Translations under genes and position numbers: made by a program | From: a virus | Virus record (IMG/VR): IMGVR_UViG_3300022918_000015 | Span: 1 to 52,578 of that record | Length of the DNA: 52,578 nt | Direction: 5' to 3' (one strand) | The notes under the pieces: generated by a model | The model's database searches: none | What the model was told of the DNA's origin: nothing | The model's input: the letters and a program-made list of their open reading frames with translations, nothing else | Part shown: piece by piece, positions 6,801 through 52,578 of the stretch | Numbering within the stretch: position 1 is the stretch's first letter | How the letters are laid out: every line of letters starts with the position of its first letter

Positions 6801-7637
6801 GAAGAGTTATATAATCAAAAAGATTTAAAAGGCAATCCAACGGGAGTAGAATTTATTCATAAACTAGTTCAATATGCCTTTTTAACTACTGGTTTTAAAC
6901 CAACTTATTTTAACATGAATGAGTTTTTACCGAAGAGTTATTTTTTAAATACTGGTCATGGTTATTTTATGAATAATTTGATAAACAGAATGAACGATGG
7001 ATATAGTGAGTTTATAGAAGATGAAAGTATTGAGAAAATGATGACATTCATGAGTATCAACAATGAGTCTAATTATAAAATAGTAGCTAATATAGAGAAA
7101 CCAGAGGGATTAATTTCAAACAAACCTATCACTAATCAGAAAATGGTTGGTAAGGTAACAATAACTGACACTAATAATTTCTATCCATTCTTTAAAAATA
7201 CTGTTTATAAAAATAATAAGATTAAAGAAAATTTATATATGCTAACTAATATATCTGATGAATTAAATGCAAAAAAAGAATTAATCAGGGTTCCTACTTA
7301 TTCTTTAATTAACTCTAATTCAGAAGAAGTGGATACAGAGAGAAACAATAAGTTAAGAAAGAAAACTAAAGTAAAGCTATTTGATTTAAATACAATAAGA
7401 CCAGAAAACTTATTTAGAGGAGAATCTCGAAATAAAAAGCTATATTTGCAATCTGAAATAGAATATACTTCAGAATTGGCTAATATATTTAAAGATAATA
7501 ACTGGACTGTATTAAATGACGATCTAGATTTACAAAAAGCAAAAAATATGCAAGAAGATAATTTCTACGGAAGAACTGAAGAAGAATGGAATGCTCTATC
7601 TAAAAAACAACAAGATAAAATAAAAGAATGTAACTAA
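810..7637 (+). CDS. crAss-like virion RNA polymerase (giant DFDID protein)
   Basis: This 2,275-residue protein carries the motif GSDFDIDKM, with D1482, D1484 and D1486 forming the DFDID signature. In crAss-like phages (Cellulophaga phage phi14:2 gp66) this motif binds the catalytic Mg2+ in the double-psi beta-barrel core of a single-chain RNA polymerase packaged in the virion and injected to transcribe early genes. The length is close to that family's, at roughly 2,200 residues. The rest is rich in Lys, Asn, Glu and Asp with no membrane segments. The start is fixed by TAATG overlaps with the genes on both sides. The motif and size are seen directly; function and injection are inferred from the family. 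Confidence 0.9.
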   Translation: MAQIHCKGSFPQGRLEIDKESILHSKLLELFPQQNKKNKEGGSILYDSLFSDSFKVFIGGDWTNKDPKSKDYKYFEANPGLLNTQDEPKLISMSGSHYFVNAKQERYFINQRTLSATDKIETINSLSLKYIQKTQNEKDSVELKAFVIKELEERYATMDSAYNQLESDLEDEIDDLEEDEILIRENQLRVLKKSMKSIKKDILDNKKSLDGIIKIIQNNLNDFNLKYIDEADVKEDDDEINTNSEIGNFTKEGSEVRDTNNIDAELKSILASIPDYIVDVDNTETPKTSKLLMLPMARPANEVKNRIVETLSNIIELELTESNYIQDPYDLMIAKLQETSNENDDSISRDFLAKIERIYNSKKTKLDKEAFKTKFVTSFYKAQNVFTISEINEKDGKLTLRHIDPASSQDKEAFIGNEFVRNIFNKFDYSSDNIKNSEDYKEARKLLVNFKTKNDIVKGLAKLDINLNYKTVNQLYNNRENVFYKIRLDKNLSLQDLFKSIFEQEIKFNDNEAADDKKVSSKGLKSIIEAYSKSDNGTQKNIVRALLDKDLFTPFNIIAKYEAINKTDLSDSSLFVGNKQRWMYSLVSGLNKEILNWKSGNLTSLKNKSHKNLIFVDYLLDLDNVKKGLYAENSNKNIAERNRRISNLKLIINSELKSTGDANPIQHKEIGEADLNMDIFFKMFNDRDEIYTTLEKSQNSQKQEALSSDMKVIFPYLFSADKSGSYSMKGFSSFENSVILDSNDELTSLGEGNQKVIKNYLLGEFEVLKRNSDLIQGYLNKTTAKQKQDYLMKYLIPDFHYATKFKNTNGNTLTYNVENDTITETDKDDNFISETKAKGLNSNFINSGSWNRWGFFNSIYEKNRSEFDLLYKFQEGVKLADPSQESHIEDVLFKLAEEEFMDVARENKSYFDSMIIVDKFGNKKSLFEVDTNIETSRLKTTPYNYAIASIFNNLEMFNLFNGDLAFYKQKGDKLSMEDALKRGPAILTDGLYIRQASVPNNQKYTTFNKEILIVDKNRYATTAVLNVLENDISKFAEQIKKGTGNNTLNYGHEIADAQGYITLDFYKRIISGTYGWSSKDNAIFERLKDKSHKYTDEDIKWLKSAGRSLQALKLTGFNLEDILDEKDNVIGQFPVYLKYSTAVLAPAIIGGTDLEKLVNQMQIQNVDQVLFKSGSKASNKPATTIFNKDENGIFTGLKDDMNLNPFLFNLSGLKLQVELPTKFDHDGVLGNQHLKNLIANLDLTDTTTKYKWRDQEFTASELQNEYDNTVKTNLQYQLNNFIEKIQIKDKTFDQTKLRELIVDQLDETADEDLIDILLDTSLPLETIPGIAQRAFPIISSYIHKHVGKVRTNAGSAIQVANIGFDRIDSPDANQIVYLTEDKELRPPLLVTNTDGSKSISKARIMMPFSSIYEQTGMSYEDFRKAFASGKIDKRIFENIIGYRIPNQSISSNDSIEVVGILPPSMGDTAIVYHEITAKTGSDFDIDKMYLMMPNFKIEENGEINYIDDVETHKGQQNKLIELMSSILTNTKTYDDLISPLDSDIQKDAINEVLYIKSILNTEDFEEEFNKFKSLKGKYKTKFLKSFSEKRKLDPIRQLSPMGLVKSRVDMLQAKKLVATMANHMTDIPMSQITNQVFKYDLKIDSFEFNKMFTLGHENNNEYKLTKIVSYLMNAAVDAAKDNYIIEGNFNSYTANGAMLMIRLGIEPVNVFKVLLNDDVLKLSKMKQMQTQKVARIQVDDYKQSLLNEYSRELVSNLQENKINFNDFIQKNEDFNSKLVLGFWNIIQLAGKELNNDIVSSKSDSNGAGKNIAEHSTLYNRMERLSKESIGSNINENFVRGRKLFKSGLDLNNIEFRPEITDDMTFLGAMMNNSLFLTNFIAKEMFVEATDNYRYIVNRISNQLGEPLPIAADNIKLISNHVYPYVMSQSGHALYNIEEDQVDYMTKEFLSEVISKKAAFPDNLMLKQLYVDASTNLISFPNYKYFDTNSKILLREAMEELYNQKDLKGNPTGVEFIHKLVQYAFLTTGFKPTYFNMNEFLPKSYFLNTGHGYFMNNLINRMNDGYSEFIEDESIEKMMTFMSINNESNYKIVANIEKPEGLISNKPITNQKMVGKVTITDTNNFYPFFKNTVYKNNKIKENLYMLTNISDELNAKKELIRVPTYSLINSNSEEVDTERNNKLRKKTKVKLFDLNTIRPENLFRGESRNKKLYLQSEIEYTSELANIFKDNNWTVLNDDLDLQKAKNMQEDNFYGRTEEEWNALSKKQQDKIKECN

Positions 7638-10600
7638 TGGCAGGAACATGTGTAAATAAATCAAGTGCTGAATTCATAGCATTAAAAGAACAAACAGGAA
7701 TAGATGAAGTTTTATTGGCAGCAAATGTTAGTATTTGGCAAGACGAAAACGGAATAGATAAATTTCCTACAGAAGAAGAGTTAAATAGTTTTTCTACAGA
7801 AGATGAAATATTATTCAATCAATATACTTCTACAGAAGATGCTATACAAAAATTCTATTCAACTAAAAGCGATAATAATACTTTATCTAGAAAACTTAAT
7901 TTAAATCTATCTGACAGAAGTGAAGATAGTATTAATATTACAGAACGCAAAATAGAAATATTAAAACAATCTTTAAATGCTGAGGTTTTAATAGATGCCA
8001 GTATTCCAGATTCAGGTCAGTTATTACCGGCTAATCATCCATTATCAAAAAGATATGGAAAACCTGTTATTGTAATAAATCCAAACAAGCTATTTTCAGA
8101 CACTGTAATTCACGAATTTGGACATTTGTATATTGACTTACTTAAAGAAGACGATGGTGTCTTAAATCAAGCGTATGGCTTGCTACGCAACACCGAATTC
8201 TACAGTAATATAGCAGCAGAATATCCAGAGTTAAGTTTAGTTGATTTAGATAAAGAGGTGTTAGCTACTGCAATAGGAATTGAGGGAGATAGAATATTTA
8301 ATAGAGATTTGCAGGATTTGTCTAATTGGCAAAAATTGAAAAACTGGATTTTAAATAAACTATCTTCTATATTCTCTGTTCAACCAAATGCTATTGAAAA
8401 ACTAGCAACTGAATTGCTTTCAAATCAAGTTAGAGTTTCCGGTGTTGAAAATTATAATACCATTATTACTCAAAGATCTAAATATAAAATAGATTCTGCT
8501 AGTTCTAATAAACAGCAAGATGTATTAGATTTATTTAAAAAATTAACTAAAGATTTTACAAAACAAACTGTTGATAATGAAAATATCTATATTGACAAAG
8601 AAGGAAATATTCACAATAATTCAGTAACCAAGAATATTAAACAATATCAAAGACGTTTTAACTCAAAAGATAAGGGTGATTATGAAATGGTATTTGACAG
8701 AACCTTATTTAATGTAGATAACATTGAATTTCAGTTAAATCAACCTAGAGTTCCAATGGCATTAACACGTGCGTTGAATGACTTTATGAATGAAAGAATA
8801 GTTTCTATTAGTTTTACTAAAGATGTTTCTGATAAAAACTGGTACGATGCTTATACAAGAGAAATTATAGAAGATGCAACTGGTGAAGTAGATGAAGTTC
8901 AACAAATGGAAGCTAATTTACTTTCTTCTCAAACAGGAGGAGCTATAACATTTAAAGCTAATATATTAAAACATTTAGATTTAATTTTAAATAGAGCTGA
9001 AGAATATCAGTTATCAGCTAATCAAAGACCTATTGTTGGACAGATAATTCACAATGCTTTAGAGAATTACATTAACGAAGAAACTCCATTTCCAAGCAAT
9101 ATATCAGATGAAGATAATGCATTATTAAATTCTATTAAAAATATAATAGATACAGGTATAGCTAATGGTAGTAGATTTGTTACTGAACAAATATTATATT
9201 CAGAAAATAAACAGATTCCAGGAACAGCAGATTTAATTGAAATAACAAAATCTGGTGAAGCTATTATTTATGATTTCAAAACAGTTAATAGTTTCTCAGG
9301 AAAAGATAAAGGAAATGAATATGAGAAAAAACCTCAATCACTTTATTTTGATAAAGGCTATATTCATCAACTACTTTCTTATGGAGCTATATTAAATCAA
9401 TACGATATTAATCTGGCAGATGATCCATATCATATTTTAATGGCTGAAGTTAAGTACTCTAACATAGAAGATTTAGATTCTACTATAACAATAGGTGAAG
9501 TTAGAAATACTTCAATGAGTTCTAAAGAATTATTACCTTTATTAAACTCAGCTAAAACAGCTATATTTAATGAATTTGCAACTAGTTCAGAACTAGAACA
9601 TATTAATATTAAGCCAGATATTCAGAATTTAAATGACTTATCTGAAAAAATTAATAGTGTTATTTCTATATATAAAAGACGAACTAGAAATATAGCAAGT
9701 AATCTTGACACGAGAGACATTGATCAAATACAAAAAGATTTAATTAAAAATCAAGATATAGAAGCAGATATTAATAAATACATTGCAAAAAATAACGAAG
9801 TAATTATTAACTCTTATGTAGATAACTTGTACAATTCATTATCTATTTTAGAACAACAAAAAGAATATATAGGAGAAGTTCCTACACCTGAATTTTTACA
9901 AAGCTTAAATTATGTATTACAATCTACTGAAGCTTTAGAAGATATAAAGAAAATACTTAGTGAAAATATTCCTTTTGAAGATAAAGATAAGTTATTAAAA
10001 ACCATAAATAAAACATTAAAAATAGTTGAAGAAAACAAAAAATACTATAAACAAAAACTACAACGTTTATCTATATCTCAACTTACTGAGAATAGTAATT
10101 TAATGCAAGGGTTATATGCTGAAAAATATCAAAGAGAAGCTAAAAAATTAGGAAAGAAAACTAAAGAAGAAATAACACTATATATAGAGCAAGAGTTAAA
10201 GAAAAATGAAACCATAATAAAAGTAAAAGAAATTCAATATTGGACCAAACAATATGAGGACGGATTTGCTGACTTAAGATTTCTTGAATACTTAATAGCG
10301 GATCCAGGTATGTCTAAATCTCAATTCGTTCAGTTAACTAAAAATATTTTAGATAAAGCAGATCAATCTACCAGAAATAAAATGATGGATGTTATTCCAG
10401 ATATAGCAAACTGGTACAATAATATTTCTTACGAAAAAACTGGAGATCCAAGAAAAGTGTGGGATAGGTTTCTAGAGAAAAATGCTAAAAACGACAATAA
10501 ACCAACAGGAGCGGTTATACCTGAATTTACAAGTAAATTTAGAGAAATGTTTCTTCAATATAGTTATCAATTAAAAGCACTATATAGAGAACTTAATAAA

Positions 10601-12874
10601 TTAAAAAATGCTCCTAAAACAGAATCTAATCAAAAATTAATTGAAGCTAAAAACGAACAAATTAAAGTATTAAAAAAAGAAAGACAGAAAACTATAAAAG
10701 AAAGAACCAGAGATGAAGATGATTTCAGAGATAGTTATATTCATCCTGATTTTGATAAATTAAACGATAAAGAAAAGGAAGATTTAAGATTTATACATAA
10801 AAATCTAACTGATGCAGATAATAGATTATATACAATACCTGAAAAGAAATTAACTCAAGAACTTGAAGACGGAACAATAATTTATAATCTTCCGAAAGAT
10901 AGAATGAGTGGTATTGAAGCAACTTATAAAGCAGGAGGAATTATTGGTACATTTAAGTCTAAGTTTGAAGACTTATTAAGACCGCCAGCAGATGAAGATA
11001 GTGAAAATATAACTAACCAAGAATATGGTTCAGAAAGTAAATTCGGAACTAATGAATTGGATGGATATGGGAATGAAGTATTTTCAGTTCCTGTTTACTA
11101 TAGAAATGATTTAGAAAATGATGAATTACAATCCTATGATATTCCTAGCTTACTAGCAATGAATCACGATACCACTATCACTTATGAAGAAAACAAACTA
11201 GTTGAAGCAGATTTATTTGTTATTGCAGAAAGTTTAAGTTCTAAAAACAATGACAAAATACTTAAAACAGATAGCTTTATTAACAGAAAAATACAAAACG
11301 CTGTTGGAAATAACTTTCAAAAATCTGATCAAAACTTAGTTTATCAAGCTGTAAAATCAAGTATAGATAACAGACTGTATAAACGTGCTTATAATGGAGT
11401 TTATTCAAAACAAAACTACCAGTTAATTAAAGGAGCTGAAGCAGTAAGTAAATATGCAAGTACTCTAGTTCTAGCTGGAAACTTTATGTCTGCTTTGTCT
11501 ACATTTACTCAAGGTAGTATTTATAGATTATTAGAGGCAAGTGTTGGAGAACATTTTACAATTACTGATTGGCAAAATGGAACTAAAAAAGCTTGGTTAG
11601 ATTTTCCAAACATGTTAAAAGATTCTCAAAAATATACTCCCGAAAGCAAAAGTGCATTATTGATTAAGAAATTTGGACTTGAAACACAATCACATGCTTT
11701 GACTAATAAATTTGTTCAGGATAATTTTGTAAAAAAACAATTAGACTCAGGTACTTTATTTTCAGTTACAAGTATGGCAGAAGCGGTTGTTACAAGTAAC
11801 TTGATGTACTCATTATTAAGCAACGTAAAGGTCACAAATGATAAAGGCGAATATATTAATCAAGAGGGAGAGAAAGTGTCTAAAAACGATGCTATGAGCC
11901 TTGACGAAGCATATACCGTAGTAGATGGTAAACTTGAATTAAATAAATTTGTAAAATACACAAGTTTTAATATTACAAGCAAATATAATGACGGTCAAAA
12001 TAAAGATAATACAATTGCAGCTACTGAGATATCAAGATACATAAGAAGCGTCTATGCTGATTTATATGGTCAATATAATCAAGATATGAAATCTGTTATG
12101 CAAAGAAATATTGCCGGTAAATTAATAATGAGTTTGAGGGGATGGTTGCCAAGAGGGGTTAACAGACGTTGGAGAGGTATTACGGATGCTATTGGTAAAG
12201 ATTTCATGAGTTTTGATGAATTAAGAGATGAAGCTAATATAGATAAAAGATTTTATTCTCAAGATCAAAAACAATTTCAAGAAGGACATTATACTACTAC
12301 TATTAGATTTATAAAGAGTTTAAGAAAACTAATGAAACAAAATCAAGAAGGATTATCTGCAAATAGAAAAACCTTAAGAGAATCTATGACAGATCATGAA
12401 ATAGCTAACTTAAAACGTACTCAGTACGAAATGGCTACGATGTTAATAATGATGGCTATGGCTATGTTGCTACGCACTATAGCAATGAGTTCTGAAGGAG
12501 ATGACAAGGATAAAGAAAAAATATATTTTGCAGCTTATTTAGCTTATAGAGTCCAAACAGAATTATCTACGTTTATATCACCTCCTGCTATGATGGAAAT
12601 GTTAACTAATCCAGCAGCAAGTATAAGTGTAGTGCAAAGAGTATTTGATTGGATGTGGCAATTAACTGGAGTAGCTTATTCTAAAGAAGAAGGTTGGGGA
12701 GTTAACATAAATGATGTTTATGATAAAGGAGATAAACAAGATGAAAGCAAAGCTTTACTTAAATCATATGGATTAGTTCCCTTTTATGTTAAAACAAACC
12801 AAATGAAAAGTATTCTAGGATTAGAAAGTAAAAATCCGATATCAGATTCATTTCAATACTCAATAAGTAAATAA
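7637..12874 (+). CDS. Giant virion protein with zincin-like and Cas4/RecB-like nuclease motifs
   Basis: The protein has 1,745 residues. An HEFGH zinc-protease motif lies at 159-163, with a downstream KEVLATAIG segment that could supply a third ligand. A PD-(D/E)XK-type nuclease signature follows: GQIIHNALE (H472), GTADLI (D532) and YDFKT (D546, K548). The middle is charged and helical. The C-terminal third holds hydrophobic stretches, notably about 1600-1617 (MLIMMAMAMLLRTIAM), which could insert in a membrane. Its place directly after the RNA polymerase fits the large cargo proteins of crAss-like virions, so it may be ejected with the polymerase to process host or phage molecules. The enzymatic roles are inferred from short motifs. 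Confidence 0.75.
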   Translation: MAGTCVNKSSAEFIALKEQTGIDEVLLAANVSIWQDENGIDKFPTEEELNSFSTEDEILFNQYTSTEDAIQKFYSTKSDNNTLSRKLNLNLSDRSEDSINITERKIEILKQSLNAEVLIDASIPDSGQLLPANHPLSKRYGKPVIVINPNKLFSDTVIHEFGHLYIDLLKEDDGVLNQAYGLLRNTEFYSNIAAEYPELSLVDLDKEVLATAIGIEGDRIFNRDLQDLSNWQKLKNWILNKLSSIFSVQPNAIEKLATELLSNQVRVSGVENYNTIITQRSKYKIDSASSNKQQDVLDLFKKLTKDFTKQTVDNENIYIDKEGNIHNNSVTKNIKQYQRRFNSKDKGDYEMVFDRTLFNVDNIEFQLNQPRVPMALTRALNDFMNERIVSISFTKDVSDKNWYDAYTREIIEDATGEVDEVQQMEANLLSSQTGGAITFKANILKHLDLILNRAEEYQLSANQRPIVGQIIHNALENYINEETPFPSNISDEDNALLNSIKNIIDTGIANGSRFVTEQILYSENKQIPGTADLIEITKSGEAIIYDFKTVNSFSGKDKGNEYEKKPQSLYFDKGYIHQLLSYGAILNQYDINLADDPYHILMAEVKYSNIEDLDSTITIGEVRNTSMSSKELLPLLNSAKTAIFNEFATSSELEHINIKPDIQNLNDLSEKINSVISIYKRRTRNIASNLDTRDIDQIQKDLIKNQDIEADINKYIAKNNEVIINSYVDNLYNSLSILEQQKEYIGEVPTPEFLQSLNYVLQSTEALEDIKKILSENIPFEDKDKLLKTINKTLKIVEENKKYYKQKLQRLSISQLTENSNLMQGLYAEKYQREAKKLGKKTKEEITLYIEQELKKNETIIKVKEIQYWTKQYEDGFADLRFLEYLIADPGMSKSQFVQLTKNILDKADQSTRNKMMDVIPDIANWYNNISYEKTGDPRKVWDRFLEKNAKNDNKPTGAVIPEFTSKFREMFLQYSYQLKALYRELNKLKNAPKTESNQKLIEAKNEQIKVLKKERQKTIKERTRDEDDFRDSYIHPDFDKLNDKEKEDLRFIHKNLTDADNRLYTIPEKKLTQELEDGTIIYNLPKDRMSGIEATYKAGGIIGTFKSKFEDLLRPPADEDSENITNQEYGSESKFGTNELDGYGNEVFSVPVYYRNDLENDELQSYDIPSLLAMNHDTTITYEENKLVEADLFVIAESLSSKNNDKILKTDSFINRKIQNAVGNNFQKSDQNLVYQAVKSSIDNRLYKRAYNGVYSKQNYQLIKGAEAVSKYASTLVLAGNFMSALSTFTQGSIYRLLEASVGEHFTITDWQNGTKKAWLDFPNMLKDSQKYTPESKSALLIKKFGLETQSHALTNKFVQDNFVKKQLDSGTLFSVTSMAEAVVTSNLMYSLLSNVKVTNDKGEYINQEGEKVSKNDAMSLDEAYTVVDGKLELNKFVKYTSFNITSKYNDGQNKDNTIAATEISRYIRSVYADLYGQYNQDMKSVMQRNIAGKLIMSLRGWLPRGVNRRWRGITDAIGKDFMSFDELRDEANIDKRFYSQDQKQFQEGHYTTTIRFIKSLRKLMKQNQEGLSANRKTLRESMTDHEIANLKRTQYEMATMLIMMAMAMLLRTIAMSSEGDDKDKEKIYFAAYLAYRVQTELSTFISPPAMMEMLTNPAASISVVQRVFDWMWQLTGVAYSKEEGWGVNINDVYDKGDKQDESKALLKSYGLVPFYVKTNQMKSILGLESKNPISDSFQYSISK

Positions 12875-23708: not shown

Positions 23709-24072
23709 CTAAATAAGTTATTTCTATTTTTACTTTTCTTTTGTTATAAGTGCCATAATAAACATTATTTTCTTGTTTTTCAATCATAAATTCTTTAGGT
23801 CCTTTATAATCCCAAAAATCTAATACTTCTTGAGAAATAATTACTTCCTCTCCTTGATATAATTCACTCCACATAGTATCTGCATCAGCATATACTGACA
23901 TCTCTAATGATTTATTCCAAGTAAAAGCTGTGTTTATATCTATAAAACCATGAGAATTATTTTCACCTGAAGAAGTTTTACCTAATTGGCTTTTCATATT
24001 TCTATAAACAGCTGATTTTATTGGTTCTGGCAAACACTCTATATTTGATCCAGTTTCTAATCTTATTTTCAT
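23695..24072 (-). CDS. Unknown protein
   Basis: A 125-residue protein with a mixed alpha/beta layout. Features include PEPIKSAVYRNMKSQLG near the N-terminus, a SGENNSHGFIDINTAFTW segment, and a C-terminal strand pair (NNVYYGTYNKRKVKIEITYL). It overlaps the primase stop by 4 bases. No motif is recognised. Confidence 0.6.
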   Translation of the reverse strand: MKIRLETGSNIECLPEPIKSAVYRNMKSQLGKTSSGENNSHGFIDINTAFTWNKSLEMSVYADADTMWSELYQGEEVIISQEVLDFWDYKGPKEFMIEKQENNVYYGTYNKRKVKIEITYLDESE

Positions 24073-25085
24073 TCTATTAATTCATTTAATACTTTTCTAC
24101 CTTTCTCCTTTCCTCTGTATTTTACTAAATCTGAAAAATCTTTTGCTTTATGTAGATCATCTATTTTAATATTTATCAATTCAGGATATTTTAAACAAAG
24201 CTTTTCAGCCATTTTCTGACCATTATTCTGTTCTTTATGAGTATCATTATCATAAAGTAAATAAACTCTCTTAAAACGCTTTAAAATAGCTTTTAAAACC
24301 ACTTCTTTAGGCATTATACTTTCGGCTTGAAATGAAACACTCGGAATTCCAGAAACATTGATTATGGCTAAAGCATCTTTTCTGCTAGAAGTAATAATTA
24401 ATTTATCTCCAGTTTCAGGTAAGGTGTTCCATAATTCCCATACAGAATAATCGTTTCCAGATATAAACTTTTTGTATTTACTAAAAGGTTGATATATCTT
24501 ATACGTTACCTTATTGTCTTTTTTTTCTATATAAGCATAAGCATATCTATCTGCTCTATAACAAATATCATTAATAAAGAAATAAGATATAGCAACTATA
24601 GTTCCTAATTTTAAATGATCTATATCTACTCCATAACTATTCCAATATTCTAAATCATCAGAATTGAATTCTCTTGATTTTATTTGTATTTTAGAATATC
24701 CTGTAGATAATGTTTTACTTGGATTTCTATATTTTGCTTTTTTAGTTTGTATAAAATAATTTATAGTAGCTATTTCAAATTCACTTCTTAAATTAAAATC
24801 AGTAACAATTTGTATTAAGCACTCATTAAAATTGATATTATATAATTGTTTAACAAAATTAAAACAATTACCTGTATCGCCTGTAGCAAAATCTTTATAT
24901 CTAAAATACCTATTACTTCCACCGATAATAAAACTAGGTTGATTGTCAACCCTGAATGGAGAACTAAATGGTACATTAAATTTAAAATTCTTAGGTAAAT
25001 ACATTTTATAAATATCTTCTTCTGAAATATAACTTAATATATTCTTAACATTTAATTCTTTTAATTCTTTTATTATCAATGTCAT
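24069..25085 (-). CDS. DnaG-type primase with an altered TOPRIM motif
   Basis: The frame could begin at 25124, but those 13 extra codons lie inside an RNA hairpin; the ATG at 25085 (MTLIIKELKEL) is preferred, giving 338 residues. The N-terminal third looks like a CHC2-type primase domain that has lost its zinc cysteines (SPFRVDNQPSF, then DFATGDTGNCFNFVKQ). The TOPRIM part has the metal-binding LLYDND, but the expected acidic residue of the first motif is Ser (LIITSSRKDALAI). It should make RNA primers for the DnaB-like helicase encoded at 29777-30889. Confidence 0.82.
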   Translation of the reverse strand: MTLIIKELKELNVKNILSYISEEDIYKMYLPKNFKFNVPFSSPFRVDNQPSFIIGGSNRYFRYKDFATGDTGNCFNFVKQLYNINFNECLIQIVTDFNLRSEFEIATINYFIQTKKAKYRNPSKTLSTGYSKIQIKSREFNSDDLEYWNSYGVDIDHLKLGTIVAISYFFINDICYRADRYAYAYIEKKDNKVTYKIYQPFSKYKKFISGNDYSVWELWNTLPETGDKLIITSSRKDALAIINVSGIPSVSFQAESIMPKEVVLKAILKRFKRVYLLYDNDTHKEQNNGQKMAEKLCLKYPELINIKIDDLHKAKDFSDLVKYRGKEKGRKVLNELIE

Positions 25086-25094
25086 TAAAATAAA

Positions 25095-25174
25095 AATAAT
25101 TAGGCTGTCTAGTGCATTTACCAAGGCTAATCCTATAACTGTATTTCAAGCTACTTCCAAAGCACCTAATTATT
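25095..25174 (-). ncRNA. Structured leader RNA directly upstream of the primase
   Basis: A perfect 10-bp stem (AATAATTAGG at 25095-25104 with CCTAATTATT at 25165-25174) closes a 60-base interior that has a possible further TGC/GCA helix and short hairpins. It ends 9 bases before the preferred primase ATG, a position suited to control of translation or to RNA processing. No known riboswitch consensus is recognised. Confidence 0.5.
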
Positions 25175-43172: not shown

Positions 43173-43174
43173 AA

Positions 43175-43384: not shown

Positions 43385-43386
43385 AA

Positions 43387-44166: not shown

Positions 44167-44181
44167 TTTTGAGATAACTAA

Positions 44182-44679
44182 TTAAAAACTATAACTAATA
44201 CTAGGAGACAAGTAATTAACTTCATCCCAGTTACTAAAACTAAGACCTATACTCACGTTTTCATGCGTATAACCAATTCCAACTCCAACTTCTGTAAAAT
44301 AATCATCAGATCCAAAATATCCGCCTGCACCTGCAATTAGGCTACCAGTTAAATTTCCCACTAATTTATAATTTGGTGAAATTTTAGCTTCCCAGAAATA
44401 ATTAGTAATCTGATCTTTGTCAAAAACATCAACTAGATTACTTCTTCCAAATACAGCTCCATAAGAGATGTTATTGCAAGTAACACCACCTTCTACTGTG
44501 GCATATGAATTTTCTTGCCAATCTCCTTGAAGATGCATAGATAATCCAAGACTCACATAATGAGTAAGTGTATTTACAGATTTAGTTTCTACAACATCCA
44601 CTTGAGGTTGTTCAATTGTTTGAGCATTCATGCTCATTGCTCCTAAGAACAACATTCCTACGATTAAGAATTTTTTCAT
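44182..44679 (-). CDS. Secreted putative outer-membrane barrel protein
   Basis: A 165-residue protein with a Bacteroidota-type signal peptide (MKKFLIVGMLFLGAMSMNAQ, cut after NAQ). The mature part has alternating strands (SNLVDVFDKDQITNYFWEAK; YVSLGLSMHLQGDW; VGIGYTHENVSIGLSF) and ends in aromatic ISYSF, a typical outer-membrane barrel end. At about 145 residues, it could be a small barrel. It is the first gene of the permease-ATPase part, so it might be the outer-membrane entry point of the importer. Confidence 0.72.
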   Translation of the reverse strand: MKKFLIVGMLFLGAMSMNAQTIEQPQVDVVETKSVNTLTHYVSLGLSMHLQGDWQENSYATVEGGVTCNNISYGAVFGRSNLVDVFDKDQITNYFWEAKISPNYKLVGNLTGSLIAGAGGYFGSDDYFTEVGVGIGYTHENVSIGLSFSNWDEVNYLSPSISYSF

Positions 44680-44699
44680 TTTTTTTGTTTTGTGTTTTA

Positions 44700-44712
44700 A
44701 GTGCTATGCACT
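44700..44712 (-). other. Short perfect palindrome in the barrel-gene leader
   Basis: AGTGC-TAT-GCACT lies 20 bases upstream of the barrel protein start. It could be an operator for a dimeric repressor or a small hairpin in the message. No known consensus is recognised. Confidence 0.35.
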
Positions 44713-44740
44713 ATTAATATTAAATTTAATTAAAAAAAAT

Positions 44741-44801
44741 AAGATATTGATCTGACTTGTTTAAACAGATAGTACGACTTGCAAGAACGTAGCAATAGCT
44801 T
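44741..44801 (-). ncRNA. Three-way-junction RNA, copy B
   Basis: The same fold as 42291-42354. The closing helix is AAGATATTG (44741-44749) with CAATAGCTT (44793-44801, one mismatch). The invariant arm is ATCTG...CAGAT (44750-44754 with 44766-44770) and the second arm TACG...CGTA (44773-44776 with 44788-44791). Linkers are again AG and G. Relative to copy A, the second arm's inner pair changes from C-G to G-C and the closing stem differs, yet pairing is kept, which argues for selection on structure. It lies 61 bases upstream of the barrel gene. Confidence 0.72.
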
Positions 44802-44803
44802 AT

Positions 44804-44853
44804 AAAAGTAAAATGGAAGAGATCGAGAGTTTCCAGTATGCTATTTTACTTTT
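44804..44853 (-). ncRNA. Hairpin next to three-way-junction copy B
   Basis: An 11-bp stem (AAAAGTAAAAT at 44804-44814 with ATTTTACTTTT at 44843-44853) closes 28 bases with an inner GGAA...TTCC pair. It directly precedes copy B on the - strand. It may be part of a two-domain leader, for example a partial terminator or processing signal before the barrel-permease-ATPase genes. Confidence 0.5.
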
Positions 44854-44887
44854 TTATTTTAAAAGAGTTAATTGACTTTATCGCTCT

Positions 44888-45163
44888 TTATAATTTATAA
44901 TGTAATTTATTATTGATAAAATAATTATAATTATCTAATAGAAATCTTTTTCTACATTTAACAGTAGTAGCTTTATAATTTCCAAGATACCAATTACCAT
45001 TTTTATCTAGAATAGCTTTGCTTACATGGTTAAAACATAAATTATTATTAAATATATAAAAATCTTTTTCATTAAAATAAGAAGATTCTCTAAATTTAAA
45101 ATTATGTTCTTTATGATGTAAATAATATAATACTAATCCTGTTATAATAATAAATATATACAT
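44888..45163 (-). CDS. Small single-pass membrane protein
   Basis: A 91-residue protein: one N-terminal span (MYIFIIITGLVLYYLH) and then a soluble, basic, aromatic part (FYIFNNNLCFNHVSKAILD; ATTVKCRKRFLLDNYNYF). Its start is coupled to the stop of the solute-binding-OmpA gene by a 1-base overlap. It is the last gene before the RNA-containing spacer at 44680-44887. Function unknown. Confidence 0.6.
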   Translation of the reverse strand: MYIFIIITGLVLYYLHHKEHNFKFRESSYFNEKDFYIFNNNLCFNHVSKAILDKNGNWYLGNYKATTVKCRKRFLLDNYNYFINNKLHYKL

Positions 45164-47001
45164 TATTTTAAAAGAGTTACTTGAACCCTTCTGTTTTTAT
45201 ACCTACCTTCAGCTGTATTATTATTGCCAATAGGTTTTTTATCTCCCAATCCTTCTACAGATTCAACTGCTTGGAATGGTAAACCTTGATTTTGCAAATA
45301 CTCTAGTACAGCGTTAGCTCTAGATTTAGATAAAATTTGATTTTGATCAGGATTACCGGTATTATCAGTATGGCCTTCAATAATGATTTTAGTTCCCTCA
45401 GCTTGAACAATTAAATTGTATAATTCTTTAAGTTGTTTATCGCTTGAATGCAATATCTCCGAACTACCTGAATTAAAATTGATTTGCCAGCTTCCAGATG
45501 CCATTACAGACGTTAACTTTTTAGAATAGTCTACTTGTTTCACTTCACCTGAATTAATACCTGAAATCGCTTGTAATGACGTCAAATCAACTGCTTTATC
45601 ATAAGGAGTAACTTTTTTAACAGCATCACTGAATCCATTTGGATTAAGATCTGTCAAATAATTAGCAACTTGTTCATAAACAGATTTGTATCTATTAATT
45701 CCATCATCACCTAATCCATAATATTGCAAAGCATCTGCATGATTCATAATTCTAGTACCACCAGCAATTTGACCATTACTTAAAGTTTTACCTTTAAACA
45801 TTTCATACCAATATTGAGGAGATTGATAACCGTAAGTTTTAGCAACACATTGTGAAGCTTTAACTCTCCAATCATCATATAACTTCATTTGATTAGCAGC
45901 AGTATAAGTAGCTTTCAAAATATTAACAACCACGTCTGGGTTAGCATCAGACCATTCTTTTAAGACTATTAAAGTTGTAGTCATTTGATTAGGAAAATCT
46001 TTAGTAGAAGATATAGTTACTGCGTGAGGAACTTTATCAAATATCATTTTATCTCCAGGCAACCAAGTACTACATAAATCAATTTTTCTAGATACAGTCT
46101 TACCTGTTGGCTTACCATCTTTAAGTTCTTTCATGTCATAAACCTTTCCATTTAATTGAGATGCAATATAATCATTTGCACATTCAATAATATTTGGATT
46201 ATGAATAAAGTTTACAGCTTCTGGATCATACGTACCGATGTTTGGATTTACTTTAATACCTTTATTAGCAAATATATAATTCAATGCTACAACCCAGTCA
46301 CCGTCTCCTACAGCAGTTACGATAACAGCTCCTTTAAGATTAGCCGGATTATCAATATATTTTTTATCTCCAATAAGTTTATCTTCTCCATAACTAGCTC
46401 CATAACAAGCCTTAACTACAGCGTGATATTTATCTTCACCAAATTTATCGTCAAGCATTTTATTTAATGTTGATATAAAATAAGGAGCGCCATCACCCAT
46501 AATACTTACTCCGAATGCACTAGTATTGCTTTGTGGATTTAAATTCCCTGAATCAAATTCAGCAGTAAAATTAACCATAGCAGCTTGTAATAGACTAAAA
46601 TCATCCTGACGTCCTATATTAAGATTTACACCATATTTTTCCATTAAACTATTTTCAGAAGTTTGAGGACCGCCATTAGCTACAATCATAGTACTATTAC
46701 CATTCCAAGTATACTCAAGTAAATTATACTTAGTTTTACTTTTTACTTTAGTTGATAAACTGTTTCCTGGCAAATCGATTTTATCTGCTTTAGAAGCGTT
46801 ATCAATTACGGTTCCATCAATTTCCAAATCATTACCTGTAGTAGATTTTAGAAAGTTCATTCCGGGGGCAAAAAAGGCTACTGCTAAATAAGCTATAACG
46901 ATAATAGCTATTACACCCAATACTTTAAGTGTATTACGACCTTTGGGAGTTAGGTTATCCCACCAACTTGTTTTTGTTTGATTTTGATTAAAATTTTCCA
47001 T
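45163..47001 (-). CDS. Membrane-anchored solute-binding protein fused to a C-terminal OmpA domain
   Basis: A 612-residue protein. Residues 26-46 (KVLGVIAIIVIAYLAVAFFA) form an N-terminal membrane anchor. Residues about 70-490 look like a periplasmic solute-binding domain of the NMT1/PstS/nitrate type (MIVANGGPQTSENSLMEKYG, then QAAMVNFTAEF; AVIVTAVGDGDW; TTTLIVLKEW). Residues 497-612 are an OmpA/MotB peptidoglycan-binding domain: FNSGSSEIL, GHTDNTG (543-549) and GRYKNRRV (599-606). This would fix a captured-solute receptor between inner membrane and cell wall, serving the permease and ATPase encoded below. Confidence 0.85.
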   Translation of the reverse strand: MENFNQNQTKTSWWDNLTPKGRNTLKVLGVIAIIVIAYLAVAFFAPGMNFLKSTTGNDLEIDGTVIDNASKADKIDLPGNSLSTKVKSKTKYNLLEYTWNGNSTMIVANGGPQTSENSLMEKYGVNLNIGRQDDFSLLQAAMVNFTAEFDSGNLNPQSNTSAFGVSIMGDGAPYFISTLNKMLDDKFGEDKYHAVVKACYGASYGEDKLIGDKKYIDNPANLKGAVIVTAVGDGDWVVALNYIFANKGIKVNPNIGTYDPEAVNFIHNPNIIECANDYIASQLNGKVYDMKELKDGKPTGKTVSRKIDLCSTWLPGDKMIFDKVPHAVTISSTKDFPNQMTTTLIVLKEWSDANPDVVVNILKATYTAANQMKLYDDWRVKASQCVAKTYGYQSPQYWYEMFKGKTLSNGQIAGGTRIMNHADALQYYGLGDDGINRYKSVYEQVANYLTDLNPNGFSDAVKKVTPYDKAVDLTSLQAISGINSGEVKQVDYSKKLTSVMASGSWQINFNSGSSEILHSSDKQLKELYNLIVQAEGTKIIIEGHTDNTGNPDQNQILSKSRANAVLEYLQNQGLPFQAVESVEGLGDKKPIGNNNTAEGRYKNRRVQVTLLK

Positions 47002-47032
47002 TTGTTTTTAATTATAGTTTTTAAATTAATTA

Positions 47033-48154
47033 TTAAAATATTCCTCCAATTCCACCTGTAGCGTCTTTTTCTTCAGCCGTAAGTTTCAAATCAGGATTAT
47101 TAAATCGTTTAGCACTAGGAATAATATCAGTACCAGCTTTAATATTGGCTACTAATTTATCCAATTGATTGAAAGACTTACTAGGGTCACCAATATTGAT
47201 ATTACCCATAGCGTCTTTAATATCTTGTAAGTTGTTTTTAGTTGTAGCAATATTATTTGCAATAGCACCTAACACTACTTCAGAAGCGAATTGAACTTCC
47301 CATTTATCATTAAAGTTTAATACATTTTTAACAGCATCTGTTCCAGCTCTCATTGCGCTAGTAGCTTCAAAATCATTCTTAAGTATCTGAACTGTTGAGT
47401 CAAAATTCTTAACACGATTTTTGAGATAACTAACAAAATATTTATACTGAGTCTCAAACTTAGTAAATACACTAGCTCTGGTTCCGAATTGAGTAATCAG
47501 ATCTTTAGCTTGTTCATAGTTCATTTCAACACGTTGATATTCCATAGCCAAATCATTTCGTTGAATACACAAATCAGCATACTCAGGATCTTCTTTAGAT
47601 TCTTCTGTAGTAAACTTTTCTATTTCTGTATTTAATTTAACAGCTTCTTCAGATATTTCAATTAATCTATCTTGATATTTTTTAGCGTCAAGTTGATTTT
47701 TAGTAGCATTAGATTTCATAGTCTCTTTACTTTGAGATATAATAGTACCAGCTCCAACAGCATCTTCATATTGTTGTACCAATTCTACTCTTTGTTCTCT
47801 AAATGCTCCAAAAGGATCATTAGTTATCCAAAATTCATGAAACTTACGAATCATAGACTTTACAATACCTTTTAATGGTTTTCTACAAGCATAGATTAAT
47901 AGAATGCTACCAACTATTGCCACAACTTGTCCAATTAGATAAAATCCTGCTGCCAATCCAGCTATAAAAGGTAATAAGATAGTCCATACAACATATCCAA
48001 TACCAATTAATCCAAGTATTCGTACTATGTTAAATACAGGTTTTTCACCTTTTTTCCATTCTTGCGGTATTAATTGTATTTCACTACTGTCAATACCGTT
48101 AAACAAAGGTAATCTACTTATCTTTGTTTGTGCGATCTGTTTAAAGTCACTCAT
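47033..48154 (-). CDS. Two-pass membrane protein with long coiled coil
   Basis: A 373-residue protein. Membrane spans lie at about 42-66 (FNIVRILGLIGIGYVVWTIL) and about 68-90 (AAGFYLIGQVVAIVGSILLI). A long coiled coil follows, about 140-310, and the C-terminus is glycine-rich (EKDATGGIGGIF). The coiled-coil part resembles PspA/toxic-anion-resistance-type proteins in amino-acid texture only. It lies 31 bases upstream of the solute-binding-OmpA gene and probably acts with it at the inner membrane. Confidence 0.65.
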   Translation of the reverse strand: MSDFKQIAQTKISRLPLFNGIDSSEIQLIPQEWKKGEKPVFNIVRILGLIGIGYVVWTILLPFIAGLAAGFYLIGQVVAIVGSILLIYACRKPLKGIVKSMIRKFHEFWITNDPFGAFREQRVELVQQYEDAVGAGTIISQSKETMKSNATKNQLDAKKYQDRLIEISEEAVKLNTEIEKFTTEESKEDPEYADLCIQRNDLAMEYQRVEMNYEQAKDLITQFGTRASVFTKFETQYKYFVSYLKNRVKNFDSTVQILKNDFEATSAMRAGTDAVKNVLNFNDKWEVQFASEVVLGAIANNIATTKNNLQDIKDAMGNINIGDPSKSFNQLDKLVANIKAGTDIIPSAKRFNNPDLKLTAEEKDATGGIGGIF

Positions 48155-49880: not shown

Positions 49881-49963
49881 CTCCCAGGGAGGGATTCGAA
49901 CCCACACACAAGTGATTGTACTACCTTCACAGATAGCTTGTCTACCAATTTCAACACCCGGGA
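49881..49963 (-). tRNA. Class II tRNA, anticodon uncertain (possibly GTG)
   Basis: The acceptor pairs TCCCGGG (49957-49963) with CCTGGGA. The D-arm has the conserved ATTGGTAGA loop, the T-arm is GTGGG-TTCGAAT-CCCTC with one mismatch, and a long variable arm ACAA-TCAC-TTGT makes it class II. The anticodon loop is only 6 bases (TGTGAA) between CTATC and GGTAG; the best reading is GTG, which would be His, but a class II arm would suit Leu, Ser or Tyr. Discriminator is G. Identity is therefore open. Confidence 0.7.
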
Positions 49964-49982
49964 ATTTTAATTTATTTCGTAG

Positions 49983-50024
49983 AACGCAAAACATACTAAC
50001 TGATCAGGTTTTCAATTTTGCGTT
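49983..50024 (-). other. Hairpin between tRNA genes
   Basis: A 9-bp perfect stem (AACGCAAAA at 49983-49991 with TTTTGCGTT at 50016-50024) closes a 24-base loop. A T-run follows only on the + strand, so terminator use would be for rightward transcripts. On the - strand it may aid processing of the tRNA precursor. Confidence 0.45.
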
Positions 50025-50140
50025 TTTATTACAAAACTACGACACTTTTTTATTTTGGACACTACTGGTCGAAAAGTATAAACGACCTCACGCATAGTAT
50101 AACTCTACAAGAATCACCAAGCTTTATTATCTAACTGTCG
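50025..50140. other. Spacer between tRNA genes with two weak helices
   Basis: No gene is seen. A 6-bp helix (ACGACA with TGTCGT) could close most of the spacer, around a 5-bp hairpin GGTCG...CGACC with an 11-base loop. The loop is too large for a T-arm, so it is not scored as a tRNA. Degenerate tRNA or processing RNA remain possible. Confidence 0.3.
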
Positions 50141-50218
50141 TGGACTTAGAGAGACTCGAACTCTCATGTAACCAAATTACGCTTTCTATTGGTTATGAGC
50201 CAAAGGCGATATAAGTCC
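50141..50218 (-). tRNA. Unusual tRNA-like gene with a CAT anticodon loop
   Basis: The acceptor stem is perfect (GGACTTA with TAAGTCC, discriminator A) and the T-arm is perfect (GAGAG-TTCGAGT-CTCTC). A CTCATAA loop between TTGG and CCAA gives anticodon CAT (Met). Between acceptor and anticodon arms only 8 bases remain, so the D-arm seems missing. About 22 bases including GTAA...TTAC sit where the variable region should be. TTGG can instead pair farther away, so an alternative fold (TAACCAA...TTGGTTA) is available. Functional status is uncertain. Confidence 0.55.
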
Positions 50219-50227
50219 GATAATTAG

Positions 50228-50311
50228 TACCGAGAACCAGATTTGAACTGGCACGAGCTATTAAGCTCACGGAATTTTAAGTCCCGCATGTCTGCATTCC
50301 ATCACCTCGGC
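50228..50311 (-). tRNA. tRNA-Leu, anticodon TAA
   Basis: A class II tRNA of 84 bases. Acceptor GCCGAGG pairs with TCTCGGT (two G-T pairs), the anticodon arm is CGGGA-CTTAAAA-TTCCG, the variable arm is GAGCT-TAAT-AGCTC, and the T-arm GCCAG-TTCAAAT-CTGGT. UUA is a favoured leucine codon in this AT-rich sequence, so the tRNA would support phage translation. CCA is not encoded. Confidence 0.9.
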
Positions 50312-50611: not shown

Positions 50612-51190
50612 TTAATTTATAGTTTGATACTCTGCAACTTTTATATACTCAGAATCTTCTTCTGGATTACATTCAGCTTCCCATTCAACATTAGTAATCC
50701 ATTTTGTATTAGGATGTTGATTCATTTCTAAATAACCTAATTCACCTTCTTCAAAAATATTAGGATTACTAGATTCGTATATTTCATCATTATCATCTAA
50801 TACATCCATTTGTTTTTTAGATAACTTTGGAGCATAACACCATCCTCCATCTCCACCAACACAATATAAATGATTATTTAATGGATTTAAATATATTTCA
50901 TTATAATCATGACCATAATAAAATTTAGCTATTTTTTGAAGTTCTATAATATTATTTTTTAAAATAGATAAATCTGCTTTATACAGCTTAGTACTTTTAC
51001 TCCATTTAGAATCTATAGTAAATACACTTATATAATCATTATTTTTATCTTTAAAAACTCTTATTGAACCTTCAATTAAATTAAACTTAGTTACTCTTTT
51101 CCAATCAGAAACATAATATTCTGAATTAATTAAATCAATACAATCTCTTGTAGATAAAACTTTAACTTTTTTGTATATAAAATCATTCAT
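50612..51190 (-). CDS. Unknown protein
   Basis: A 192-residue protein: N-terminal YKKVKVLSTRDCIDLIN, a middle with a Gly/Trp/Cys block (NHLYCVGGDGGWCYAPKL) and an acidic C-terminal region (WEAECNPEEDSEYIKVAEY). The two cysteines and aromatic turn suggest a folded domain, but no family is recognised. Confidence 0.6.
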   Translation of the reverse strand: MNDFIYKKVKVLSTRDCIDLINSEYYVSDWKRVTKFNLIEGSIRVFKDKNNDYISVFTIDSKWSKSTKLYKADLSILKNNIIELQKIAKFYYGHDYNEIYLNPLNNHLYCVGGDGGWCYAPKLSKKQMDVLDDNDEIYESSNPNIFEEGELGYLEMNQHPNTKWITNVEWEAECNPEEDSEYIKVAEYQTIN

Positions 51191-51195
51191 AAATT

Positions 51196-51492
51196 TTAAT
51201 TATATAATTGTAATTTACATACATATCCAAGGCTATAATTACCTTGATATTGATTAAAAGTAAAATTTATTGATTGTTTTTTGCCTTCAAATTCGCTAAC
51301 TAATTCTCTGTTAGAATCAATCATTTCGTAATTATGACCCACTTTTGATTTTGATTTCACATCTATTGCGTGAGCGTGTAGCTTCAATCTCTCTTCTTGA
51401 TAACCCACAGGATTTAATCTCAAAGTTTCTTTCCAATCACGTTTTGCGTCTTTAATTTCTTTTCTTCTTTTTAATTGTTCTTTAGTTGCCAT
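51196..51492 (-). CDS. Unknown small protein
   Basis: A 98-residue protein with a basic helical N-terminus (KEQLKRRKEIKDAKRDWKET) and a beta-like C-terminus (QSINFTFNQYQGNYSLGYV). It lies 5 bases upstream of its neighbour and 14 bases below the T9SS-type gene. Unknown function. Confidence 0.58.
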   Translation of the reverse strand: MATKEQLKRRKEIKDAKRDWKETLRLNPVGYQEERLKLHAHAIDVKSKSKVGHNYEMIDSNRELVSEFEGKKQSINFTFNQYQGNYSLGYVCKLQLYN

Positions 51493-51506: not shown

Positions 51507-52578
51507 TTATTCTTTATAGATTTTTAGAGTATACTTTTCTTCTTTATTGTAAATCTTAATTATATAAATACCTTTTGGTAAGTTAGATAAATCGTGATTA
51601 TTTTTATTTAATTCTTGACCTAATATATTATAAACATTAAATTCATAATCTCTTATATTAGATATAATTAACTGATCATTATATATAAATGCTTTAACTG
51701 TCAAGTTGTTGATAATAACTGTTTGATTTAAATTATTATAACCTGTACTTTCTTCCCAAGTATTTTCATTAGCACATCTAATTGAATAAATAGGATTTGT
51801 AGGTATATCAATATCAGGTAAGTTTAAATATAATCTATAGTTTCCATTAGGTAAATTATTGTTAATAACATGATAAATTAAGCTACCGTTTACAACATCG
51901 CATTGCCAAAAGTTAGGATCTGTATTTAGTAATATGCTAAATTCCTGACCAGTTGCAATATTTTTATAAACAATATAAGCCTTTCTATCATTAACAAGAT
52001 TACCAAATCCTTTATTCTCTAGAGTAATAGAAATAGCATTGTTATTTATATAACTATTAAGTAATACAAATCTATATCCTAATCTATTAATTATCTCGCT
52101 TTTACAGTTATTTACTTGCCAATTATTCCAAACATCAGGATGATAAGACATATTTAAATAATTAAAATGAAATCTTTCCAATGTTAATAAAGCATTACTA
52201 CAATCTGTGCTTGGTGATATTAATCCACATGATTCTCCACCAGCAATAGTAAATCTCGTTTGACTATCTAAATATGAATATTCATTTGTTGTATTAGTAA
52301 ATCCTTCCCAACCTGTTCTTAAGAAACAATCATTATGATAACTCATCCTAGAAGCATTACTATTATTATACGCCTGTTCATTTGTTATAGCATTATTTCC
52401 TGTAATACTTCTCATTATACTTGGAGTTCTAAAAGCTATATTTCTTTTAGGACATAATTCAAATATTTTATTACCAATTTCAATTCTATTAGCTAATTGT
52501 GTAGCAGTTAAATTATCAGTATTGCCATAATTTGAACTATCATACCACTCACCATACTCACCTATAAATCCAGCTTCT
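51507..52578 (-). CDS. DUF4832-like secreted protein with T9SS C-terminal domain, 5' end cut off
   Basis: The frame is open to the right edge, so the start lies beyond the window; the ATG at 52415 is internal. The edge segment contains GFIGEYGEWYDSSNYG, recalling DUF4832/DUF4874 proteins (putative TIM-barrel glycoside-hydrolase-like). A beta-sandwich-like region follows, and the last 75 residues form a type IX secretion sorting domain (YNILGQEL, then LSNLPKGIYIIKIYN). In Bacteroidota such domains direct export across the outer membrane. In a phage it suggests a secreted carbohydrate-active or surface-modifying protein; the enzyme activity is inferred. Confidence 0.75.
   Translation of the reverse strand, partial: EAGFIGEYGEWYDSSNYGNTDNLTATQLANRIEIGNKIFELCPKRNIAFRTPSIMRSITGNNAITNEQAYNNSNASRMSYHNDCFLRTGWEGFTNTTNEYSYLDSQTRFTIAGGESCGLISPSTDCSNALLTLERFHFNYLNMSYHPDVWNNWQVNNCKSEIINRLGYRFVLLNSYINNNAISITLENKGFGNLVNDRKAYIVYKNIATGQEFSILLNTDPNFWQCDVVNGSLIYHVINNNLPNGNYRLYLNLPDIDIPTNPIYSIRCANENTWEESTGYNNLNQTVIINNLTVKAFIYNDQLIISNIRDYEFNVYNILGQELNKNNHDLSNLPKGIYIIKIYNKEEKYTLKIYKE

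What the first reader, a model, noticed from the sequence alone, without database searches (positions are those of the whole stretch)
51507..52578. Phage-encoded T9SS-exported protein
The C-terminal sorting domain (YNILGQEL ... LPKGIYIIKIYN) is the export tag of Bacteroidota type IX secretion. A phage gene using the host's T9SS to export a DUF4832-like protein would be unusual: it may change the host surface, block superinfection or digest matrix polysaccharide.
Basis: partly seen in the sequence, partly recalled or inferred. Interest (0 to 1): 0.75.

Follow-up and report, generated by a model that had tools for sequence, protein, structure and literature searches.

The report
Phage-encoded surface-exported glycoside hydrolase
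A crAss-like phage of Bacteroidota carries a gene for a sugar-polymer-cutting enzyme tagged for export by its host's own type IX secretion system. The same kind of gene turns up in about a dozen other phage sequences, so these phages probably make the infected cell strip sugars from its own surface or surroundings.

Summary
Window 51507-52577(-) is the last 356 residues of a DUF4874-DUF4832 protein ending in a T9SS type A sorting domain (TIGR04183 30.8 bits, cut-off 23). The 5' end runs off the contig; against a full-length relative, about 143 residues are missing, including any signal peptide. The contig is crAss-like phage (RNA-polymerase-associated protein, crAss-type primase, ligase, helicase). 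The gene lies 14 bp from the next phage gene, has phage codon usage, and sits near a gene with a relative in a 430-kb phage, so host contamination is unlikely. A profile scan found the family on 23 other IMG/VR viral contigs, in two forms. Thirteen proteins have signal peptide + DUF4874/DUF4832 + C-terminal tail (12 of the tails match TIGR04183). Twelve lack signal peptide and recognisable tail; one is fused to a putative virion-attachment module. Two contigs carry both forms. The full-length phage relative folds as a GH5/GH14-like TIM barrel with invariant acidic residues, all kept in the window protein. A DUF4832 protein in Streptococcus is a published Pel-degrading hydrolase. Best reading: a host-derived glycan depolymerase exported through the host T9SS during infection. 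Phage T9SS cargo was reported in 2019 and 2020; this cargo family and its two-form use appear new. The biological role is inferred.

The parts
51507..52577 (-). 3' part of a gene for a DUF4874-DUF4832-T9SS-tail protein (356 aa, 5' end lost at the contig edge; about 143 residues missing compared with the full-length relative P0008)
52419..52577 (-). C-terminal part of the DUF4874 half of the TIM barrel, with the conserved GEYGEWY motif (E10, invariant; codon about 52548-52550)
   Evidence: 18.3 bits, below cut-off because truncated
51768..52349 (-). DUF4832 domain (second half of the TIM barrel plus beta-sandwich) with invariant N82-D83 and GGE115
   Evidence: (E 5e-40)
51513..51674 (-). T9SS type A C-terminal sorting domain (YNILGQEL...LPKGIYIIKIYN...YTLKIYK)
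   Evidence: TIGR04183 above cut-off; shuffle control; fold match to 8glk_D, 5ag8
51196..51492 (-). next gene downstream, 98 aa, unknown function, 14 bp from the stop of the DUF4832 gene; likely co-transcribed
   Evidence: no relatives found
50612..51190 (-). 192-aa gene of unknown function; 44% identical relative on the 430-kb phage contig G002, which also carries two DUF4832 genes
49881..50311 (-). three tRNA genes (Leu at 50228-50311; two more at 50141-50218 and 49881-49963)
7637..12874 (+). 1745-aa protein related to the crAss-like RNA-polymerase-associated/structural protein of Cellulophaga phage phi14:2 (25% over 752 aa, E 2e-42): identifies the contig as crAss-like phage
24069..25124 (-). 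DNA primase of the crAss-like/Cellulophaga phi14:2 type (37-38% identity)

Best explanation
The gene is a phage gene, derived from a Flavobacteriaceae-type chromosomal gene. It encodes a two-domain glycoside-hydrolase-like enzyme (DUF4874+DUF4832: TIM barrel plus beta-sandwich) with a Sec signal peptide (inferred for the window copy, seen in relatives) and a T9SS type A sorting tail. During infection the protein is made in the host, crosses the inner membrane by Sec, and is recognised by its tail and carried over the outer membrane by the host's own T9SS. There it is anchored or released and cuts a polysaccharide of the host surface or surrounding matrix (capsule, exopolysaccharide or biofilm polymer). 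The most likely benefit is to open the matrix around the infected cell so that progeny can leave and are not trapped on debris. Shown here: phage location, domain content, sorting tail, GH-like fold and retained acidic residues, recurrence in other phages. Inferred: the signal peptide of the window copy, actual export, catalytic activity, substrate and benefit.
For: Domains and tail. Tail fold matches the solved T9SS substrate tail 8glk_D (NucA substrate-bound complex). Full-length phage relative P0008 (45% identical in alignment A2) with signal peptide MKKLFLLLLFTTLSFSQ. AlphaFold model of P0008 (pLDDT 92.5) is a TIM barrel matching GH5 endoglucanases/mannanases and GH14 beta-amylase (VIA Z 12-13.7; rmsd about 4 for single-domain matches). 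Invariant E153, N213-D214 and E248 (E248 directly follows strand 7, where clan-A nucleophiles sit), all kept in the window as E10, N82-D83, E115. Signal peptide and tail occur together: 13 viral proteins with both, 12 with neither. Phage context: window crAss-like genes; terminase in the L011, L093, L099, L104 and L106 contigs; portal in L104 and endolysin near the L011 gene. Codon usage of the window gene is phage-like (GC3 0.126, phage genes 0.083-0.200; chromosomal homologues 0.20-0.66). The source lineage is chromosomal in Flavobacterium (between aconitase and an amino-acid permease). Function of the family: DUF4832 protein SIR_1591 disrupts Pel aggregates (PMC12345266); DUF4832 genes lie beside pel operons (PMC7112168); DUF4874-DUF4832-dockerin in cellulosomes (PMC7480376).
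Against: The signal peptide of the window copy cannot be seen. No hydrolase assay was found for any phage member, and the homology between SIR_1591 and these proteins was not aligned here. The role at the surface is inference; deletion of SIR_1591 in its own host had no aggregation phenotype (PMC12345266). In the window the gene lies in the minus-strand block with replication genes and tRNAs rather than beside tail or lysis genes, which fits an early role at least as well as a late dispersal role.
Confidence: 0.6

Rival explanations
1. Same exported enzyme, but the benefit is superinfection exclusion or surface remodelling: it removes the capsule or surface glycan that serves as phage receptor, so that the infected cell cannot be adsorbed by competitors.
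For: Surface delivery by T9SS fits. In the window the gene lies on the strand of the replication genes, compatible with early expression. The same idea was put forward for Cryophage T9SS cargo (PMC7468147).
Against: In other phages the gene sits beside tail, lysis or packaging genes (L011, L093, L094, L099, L101, L104), suggesting late expression. No receptor data.
Confidence: 0.2
2. Auxiliary metabolic role: the exported hydrolase frees sugars from environmental polysaccharide and feeds the infected host, hence phage yield. The ABC-importer-like cassette at 42360-48154 in the same window could be a partner.
For: Bacterial relatives include secreted and cellulosomal proteins (PMC7480376). The phage also encodes ABC-transporter-like genes.
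Against: Infected-cell lifetimes are short. No link between the importer-like genes and sugars was found, and a related importer-like block occurs in a phage without DUF4832 (LR756500).
Confidence: 0.1
3. Virion-associated depolymerase: the protein is mainly packed in the phage tail, and signal peptide and tail are leftovers of its bacterial origin.
For: Twelve viral DUF4832 proteins lack signal peptide and recognisable tail. In L094 one such protein starts with a module shared with neighbouring putative tail proteins, and L112 lies directly after a tail-fibre gene. So the domain is probably used this way in some phages.
Against: Signal peptide and tail are kept together in 13 viral proteins, including a phage-dominated clade in the tree. 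Leftovers would be lost, and a signal peptide would draw the protein away from the assembling virion.
Confidence: 0.06
4. Assembly chimera or host contamination at the contig end: the gene belongs to a Flavobacterium chromosome.
For: The closest relatives are Flavobacteriaceae chromosomal genes; the gene lies at the very contig edge.
Against: Gene spacing of 14 bp in the same operon-like array; phage-like codon usage and GC3; a flanking gene with a relative in a 430-kb phage that carries two DUF4832 genes; long branch and at most 49% identity to any bacterial copy; independent phage contigs with terminase, portal or endolysin and the same gene.
Confidence: 0.04

Closest known systems
Phage-encoded T9SS cargo of Cryophage (endoglucanase, GH39 and PA14 proteins with T9SS tails; PMC7468147, 2020)
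   Same: Phage of the Bacteroidota sphere encoding proteins with a T9SS type A sorting domain; carbohydrate-active cargo
   Different: Different cargo family (DUF4874-DUF4832). Here the family recurs across many viral contigs, in a crAss-like phage, and coexists with untagged forms. Sequence relationship to Cryophage genes was not tested
crAss-BACON and neighbouring ORFs with T9SS sorting domains (PMC6949934, 2019)
   Same: crAss-like or gut phages with T9SS-tagged ORFs
   Different: BACON repeats there, no hydrolase verified; DUF4832 not mentioned in the passages read
SIR_1591 of Streptococcus intermedius (DUF4832 + TIM barrel; PMC12345266)
   Same: Same domain name and layout (TIM barrel + DUF4832 beta-domain), extracellular, active glycoside hydrolase on Pel aggregates
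   Different: Membrane-anchored in a Gram-positive host, no T9SS tail, encoded beside a pel operon; not aligned here
Chromosomal DUF4832 proteins with sorting tails in Flavobacterium (e.g. F. luteum L013, F. caeni L015)
   Same: Signal peptide + DUF4874-DUF4832 + C-terminal tail; nearest relatives of the window protein in the tree
   Different: Fixed chromosomal locus between aconitase and an amino-acid permease; higher GC3
DUF4832 protein of Ackermannviridae sp. ctaCq7 (A0A8S5R645, BFVD)
   Same: Viral protein with DUF4832 and similar fold (E 1e-16)
   Different: 15% identity, 731 aa; sorting tail not checked

Membership tests
T9SS type A cargo | C-terminal sorting domain matching TIGR04183 above its cut-off | tested here: met
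   30.8 bits against 23; shuffle control; fold match to solved T9SS substrate tails 8glk_D and 5ag8
T9SS type A cargo | N-terminal Sec signal peptide | tested here: inconclusive
   5' end lies off the contig; present in the 13 tailed viral relatives (12 by a simple rule, L105 by eye with a GTG start)
T9SS type A cargo | Export that depends on the host T9SS (SprA/PorV/GldKLMN) | not testable with these tools
   needs a genetic experiment in a Bacteroidota host
DUF4832 (PF16116) | match above gathering score | tested here: met
   137.9 bits against 29.2
DUF4874 (PF16173) N-terminal half | match above gathering score | tested here: inconclusive
   18.3 bits over the last 45 of 159 positions because the gene is cut; 129.9 bits in the full-length phage relative P0008
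Glycoside hydrolase, clan-A-like TIM barrel | TIM-barrel fold with similarity to GH enzymes | tested here: met
   P0008 model, GH5/GH14 matches, VIA Z 12-13.7; a shared fold does not prove function
Glycoside hydrolase, clan-A-like TIM barrel | two catalytic carboxylates near the ends of strands 4 and 7 | tested here: inconclusive
   E153 (9 residues after strand 4) and E248 (directly after strand 7) are invariant in 46 sequences and kept in the window; geometry and activity not tested
crAss-like phage (Crassvirales) | crAss-like marker genes (RNA-polymerase-associated giant protein, primase) | tested here: met
   no terminase of phrog_6681 on this fragment, and no capsid or portal gene was identified
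Cryophage-type phage T9SS cargo | phage location of a T9SS-tagged carbohydrate-active gene | tested here: met
   same kind of arrangement; sequence relationship to Cryophage cargo not tested

The most novel reading that the evidence does not exclude
Bacteroidota phages deploy one glycan-depolymerase domain by two routes, sometimes in the same genome: an untagged copy on or with the virion (to get in) and a T9SS-tagged copy displayed outside the infected cell through the host's secretion system (to get progeny out, or to keep rivals off). Loss and gain of signal peptide and sorting tail would switch a protein between the two routes.
Probability: 0.35. Interest if true: 0.75.

Novelty: new variant of a known kind. 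Interest (0 to 1): 0.55.

Why it matters
If true, these phages do not only carry depolymerases on their tails; they also make the doomed cell secrete one through its own outer-membrane machine. That gives a concrete, testable function to a DUF (DUF4832/DUF4874) in phages, shows T9SS cargo to be a recurrent phage gene class rather than a single-phage oddity, and offers a handle on how phages of gliding and biofilm-forming Bacteroidota deal with surface polysaccharide.

Tried and rejected
Single-sequence pattern scans of IMG/VR with P0001, P0003 and P0007 and of the GTDB genomes with P0001 found nothing; only the alignment-based scans worked. No DUF4832 relative in INPHARED phages by tblastn. 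No overlapping viral contig that would restore the 5' end (exact 29-mer). No close DNA relative of the right end among phages. PDB sequence search gave no relative of the whole protein and only weak or chance hits for the tail (8glk_D among them at E 0.05). Foldseek on the truncated window model gave mainly beta-sandwich matches because half the barrel is missing, so the full-length relative was used. Searched for DUF4832 in the 462-kb phage LR756500, which shares the 42-48 kb block: absent, but that phage has another signal-peptide + T9SS-tail protein. Checked whether the Flavobacterium relatives nearest the window protein are prophage genes: the three loci with readable flanks (L013-L015) have chromosomal neighbours, so no. 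Host contamination considered and rejected (and rivals).

Full report
What is in the sequence. On the minus strand of the window a single open frame runs from the contig end (52577) to a stop at 51507: 356 residues, 5' end open. The window is the whole IMG/VR record, so the start of the gene is lost. The protein contains DUF4832 (E 5e-40), the last third of DUF4874, and a C-terminal T9SS type A sorting domain (TIGR04183 30.8 bits, cut-off 23). The tail is not a composition artefact: a profile made only from tails of bacterial homologues gives 28.7 bits to the real tail and at most 14.8 bits to 2000 shuffles, and the modelled domain matches the solved T9SS substrate tails 8glk_D and RgpB 5ag8.

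The contig is phage. It carries a primase of the crAss-like/Cellulophaga phi14:2 type, a 1745-aa relative of the crAss-like RNA-polymerase-associated protein of phi14:2 (E 2e-42), a DNA ligase, a DnaB-like helicase and a NinI-like phosphatase. The DUF4832 gene stops 14 bp before the next gene of a continuous minus-strand array. Its codon usage and GC3 (0.126) fall inside the range of the other phage genes (0.083-0.200) and outside that of the four bacterial homologues compared (0.20-0.66). The 192-aa gene two places away has a 44% identical relative on a 430-kb phage contig that itself carries two DUF4832 genes. Host contamination is therefore unlikely, although the contig ends inside the gene and the far flank cannot be seen.

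Relatives. An alignment-based scan of IMG/VR found the family on 23 other contigs, several with undoubted phage genes: terminase in five of them, portal in L104, endolysin beside the L011 gene. The best full-length relative, P0008 in L011 (105-kb phage contig), has a signal peptide, both DUF halves and a tail that aligns with that of the window protein (45% overall), although TIGR04183 itself does not find that tail. Relative to P0008 the window copy lacks residues 1-143.

Two forms. Of the viral DUF4832 proteins, 13 have an N-terminal signal peptide and a C-terminal tail; TIGR04183 matches 12 of these (L097 is cut by its contig end and L098 is below cut-off; L011 is tailed by alignment only). 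Twelve have neither a signal peptide nor a recognisable tail (L113 is cut short at its 3' end, and L106/L107 are the same protein). Two contigs (L094, and the 430-kb contig of L095/L112) carry one of each. In L094 the untagged protein begins with a short module (IGGGEKANLLREISKQFDRLL) resembling the starts of two neighbouring genes (IGFSNEENLLWEISRQLDRAF; IGWSQEANLLYQILKQVTRL), which looks like a virion-attachment module (inference), and L112 directly follows a tail-fibre gene. In several phages the tagged gene directly follows a small conserved gene and lies among tail, lysis or packaging genes.

Origin. In a maximum-likelihood tree of 120 proteins, 20 viral and 7 bacterial rows form a supported clade (SH-aLRT 98). 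The window protein and L011 sit in a six-row subclade with Flavobacteriaceae genes. Of these, the three with readable surroundings are chromosomal, two of them between aconitase and an amino-acid permease or with both close by. The branching suggests at least two transfers from Flavobacteriaceae-type hosts plus a separate, mostly viral radiation; the exact number is not resolved.

What the protein is. AlphaFold2 on P0008 with 46 sequences (pLDDT 92.5, pTM 0.81) gives a TIM barrel, a beta-sandwich and a C-terminal sorting domain. The barrel matches GH5 endoglucanases and mannanases and GH14 beta-amylases (Foldseek to 4e-8; VIA Z 12-13.7, rmsd about 4 A over 220-250 residues for the single-domain matches). 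E153, N213-D214 and E248 are invariant in 46 sequences; E248 follows strand 7 directly, the usual place of the clan-A nucleophile (established knowledge of GH clan A). All are present in the window copy. In the literature a DUF4832/TIM-barrel protein, SIR_1591, is an active glycoside hydrolase that disrupts Pel-dependent aggregates (PMC12345266), DUF4832 genes accompany pel operons (PMC7112168), and DUF4874-DUF4832-dockerin proteins occur in cellulosomes (PMC7480376).

How it most likely works. Shown: phage gene, sorting tail, GH-like fold with kept acidic residues, recurrence with signal peptide in relatives. Inferred: Sec export, T9SS translocation by the host machine, hydrolysis of a surface or matrix polysaccharide, and the benefit. 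Matrix or capsule opening for progeny release is preferred because the family has a matrix-degrading precedent and sits near late genes in other phages; superinfection exclusion is the main rival, and the window's own gene order leaves room for it.

Novelty. Phage-encoded T9SS cargo is known: Cryophage (PMC7468147) and crAss-BACON phages (PMC6949934). The library searched here holds no paper that discusses DUF4832 or DUF4874 in phages, though BFVD lists a DUF4832 protein of an Ackermannviridae metagenomic phage. What appears new is the cargo family, its spread, and the paired tagged and untagged forms. A related 462-kb phage, LR756500, lacks DUF4832 but carries another signal-peptide + T9SS-tail protein, so exporting something through T9SS seems a repeated habit of these phages.

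Noticed in passing
window 42360-48154 (-): ABC-importer-like cassette in a phage: ATPase (PF00005), permease (PF00528), a membrane-anchored protein ending in an OmpA domain whose N-terminal part looks like a substrate-binding protein (by eye), and a helical 373-aa protein. The same genes are conserved in the 462-kb phage LR756500 (30-59% identity), and the OmpA protein weakly in Lak megaphages.
   Followed up: partly
L008:1498-2607 (-) (LR756500 about 36.9-38.0 kb): A second, unrelated signal-peptide + T9SS-tail protein (369 aa, TIGR04183 37.1 bits) in a 462-kb phage that shares the 42-48 kb block with the window.
   Followed up: partly
L094:11894-14509: Three neighbouring genes share a short N-terminal module (like IGGGEKANLLREISKQFDRLL); one carries DUF4832. 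Looks like a virion-attachment module of swappable tail proteins.
   Followed up: partly
L102, L103, L105, L106/L107 (DUF4832 genes of about 1000 aa): Long versions carry some 500 further residues after DUF4832; L106 has a weak Cleaved_Adhesin match in that part.
   Followed up: no
window 49881-50311 (-): Three tRNA genes; ARAGORN sees two, one with an odd four-base anticodon call, and Rfam finds the third.
   Followed up: partly
window 34126-35433 (-): MoxR-type AAA ATPase in the phage (PF20030/PF07728), followed downstream on the same strand by a 451-aa protein of unknown function.
   Followed up: no
L093:13408-14952: Phage-encoded GroEL-like chaperonin (phrog_5725, E 3e-131) a few genes from the DUF4832 gene.
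   Followed up: no
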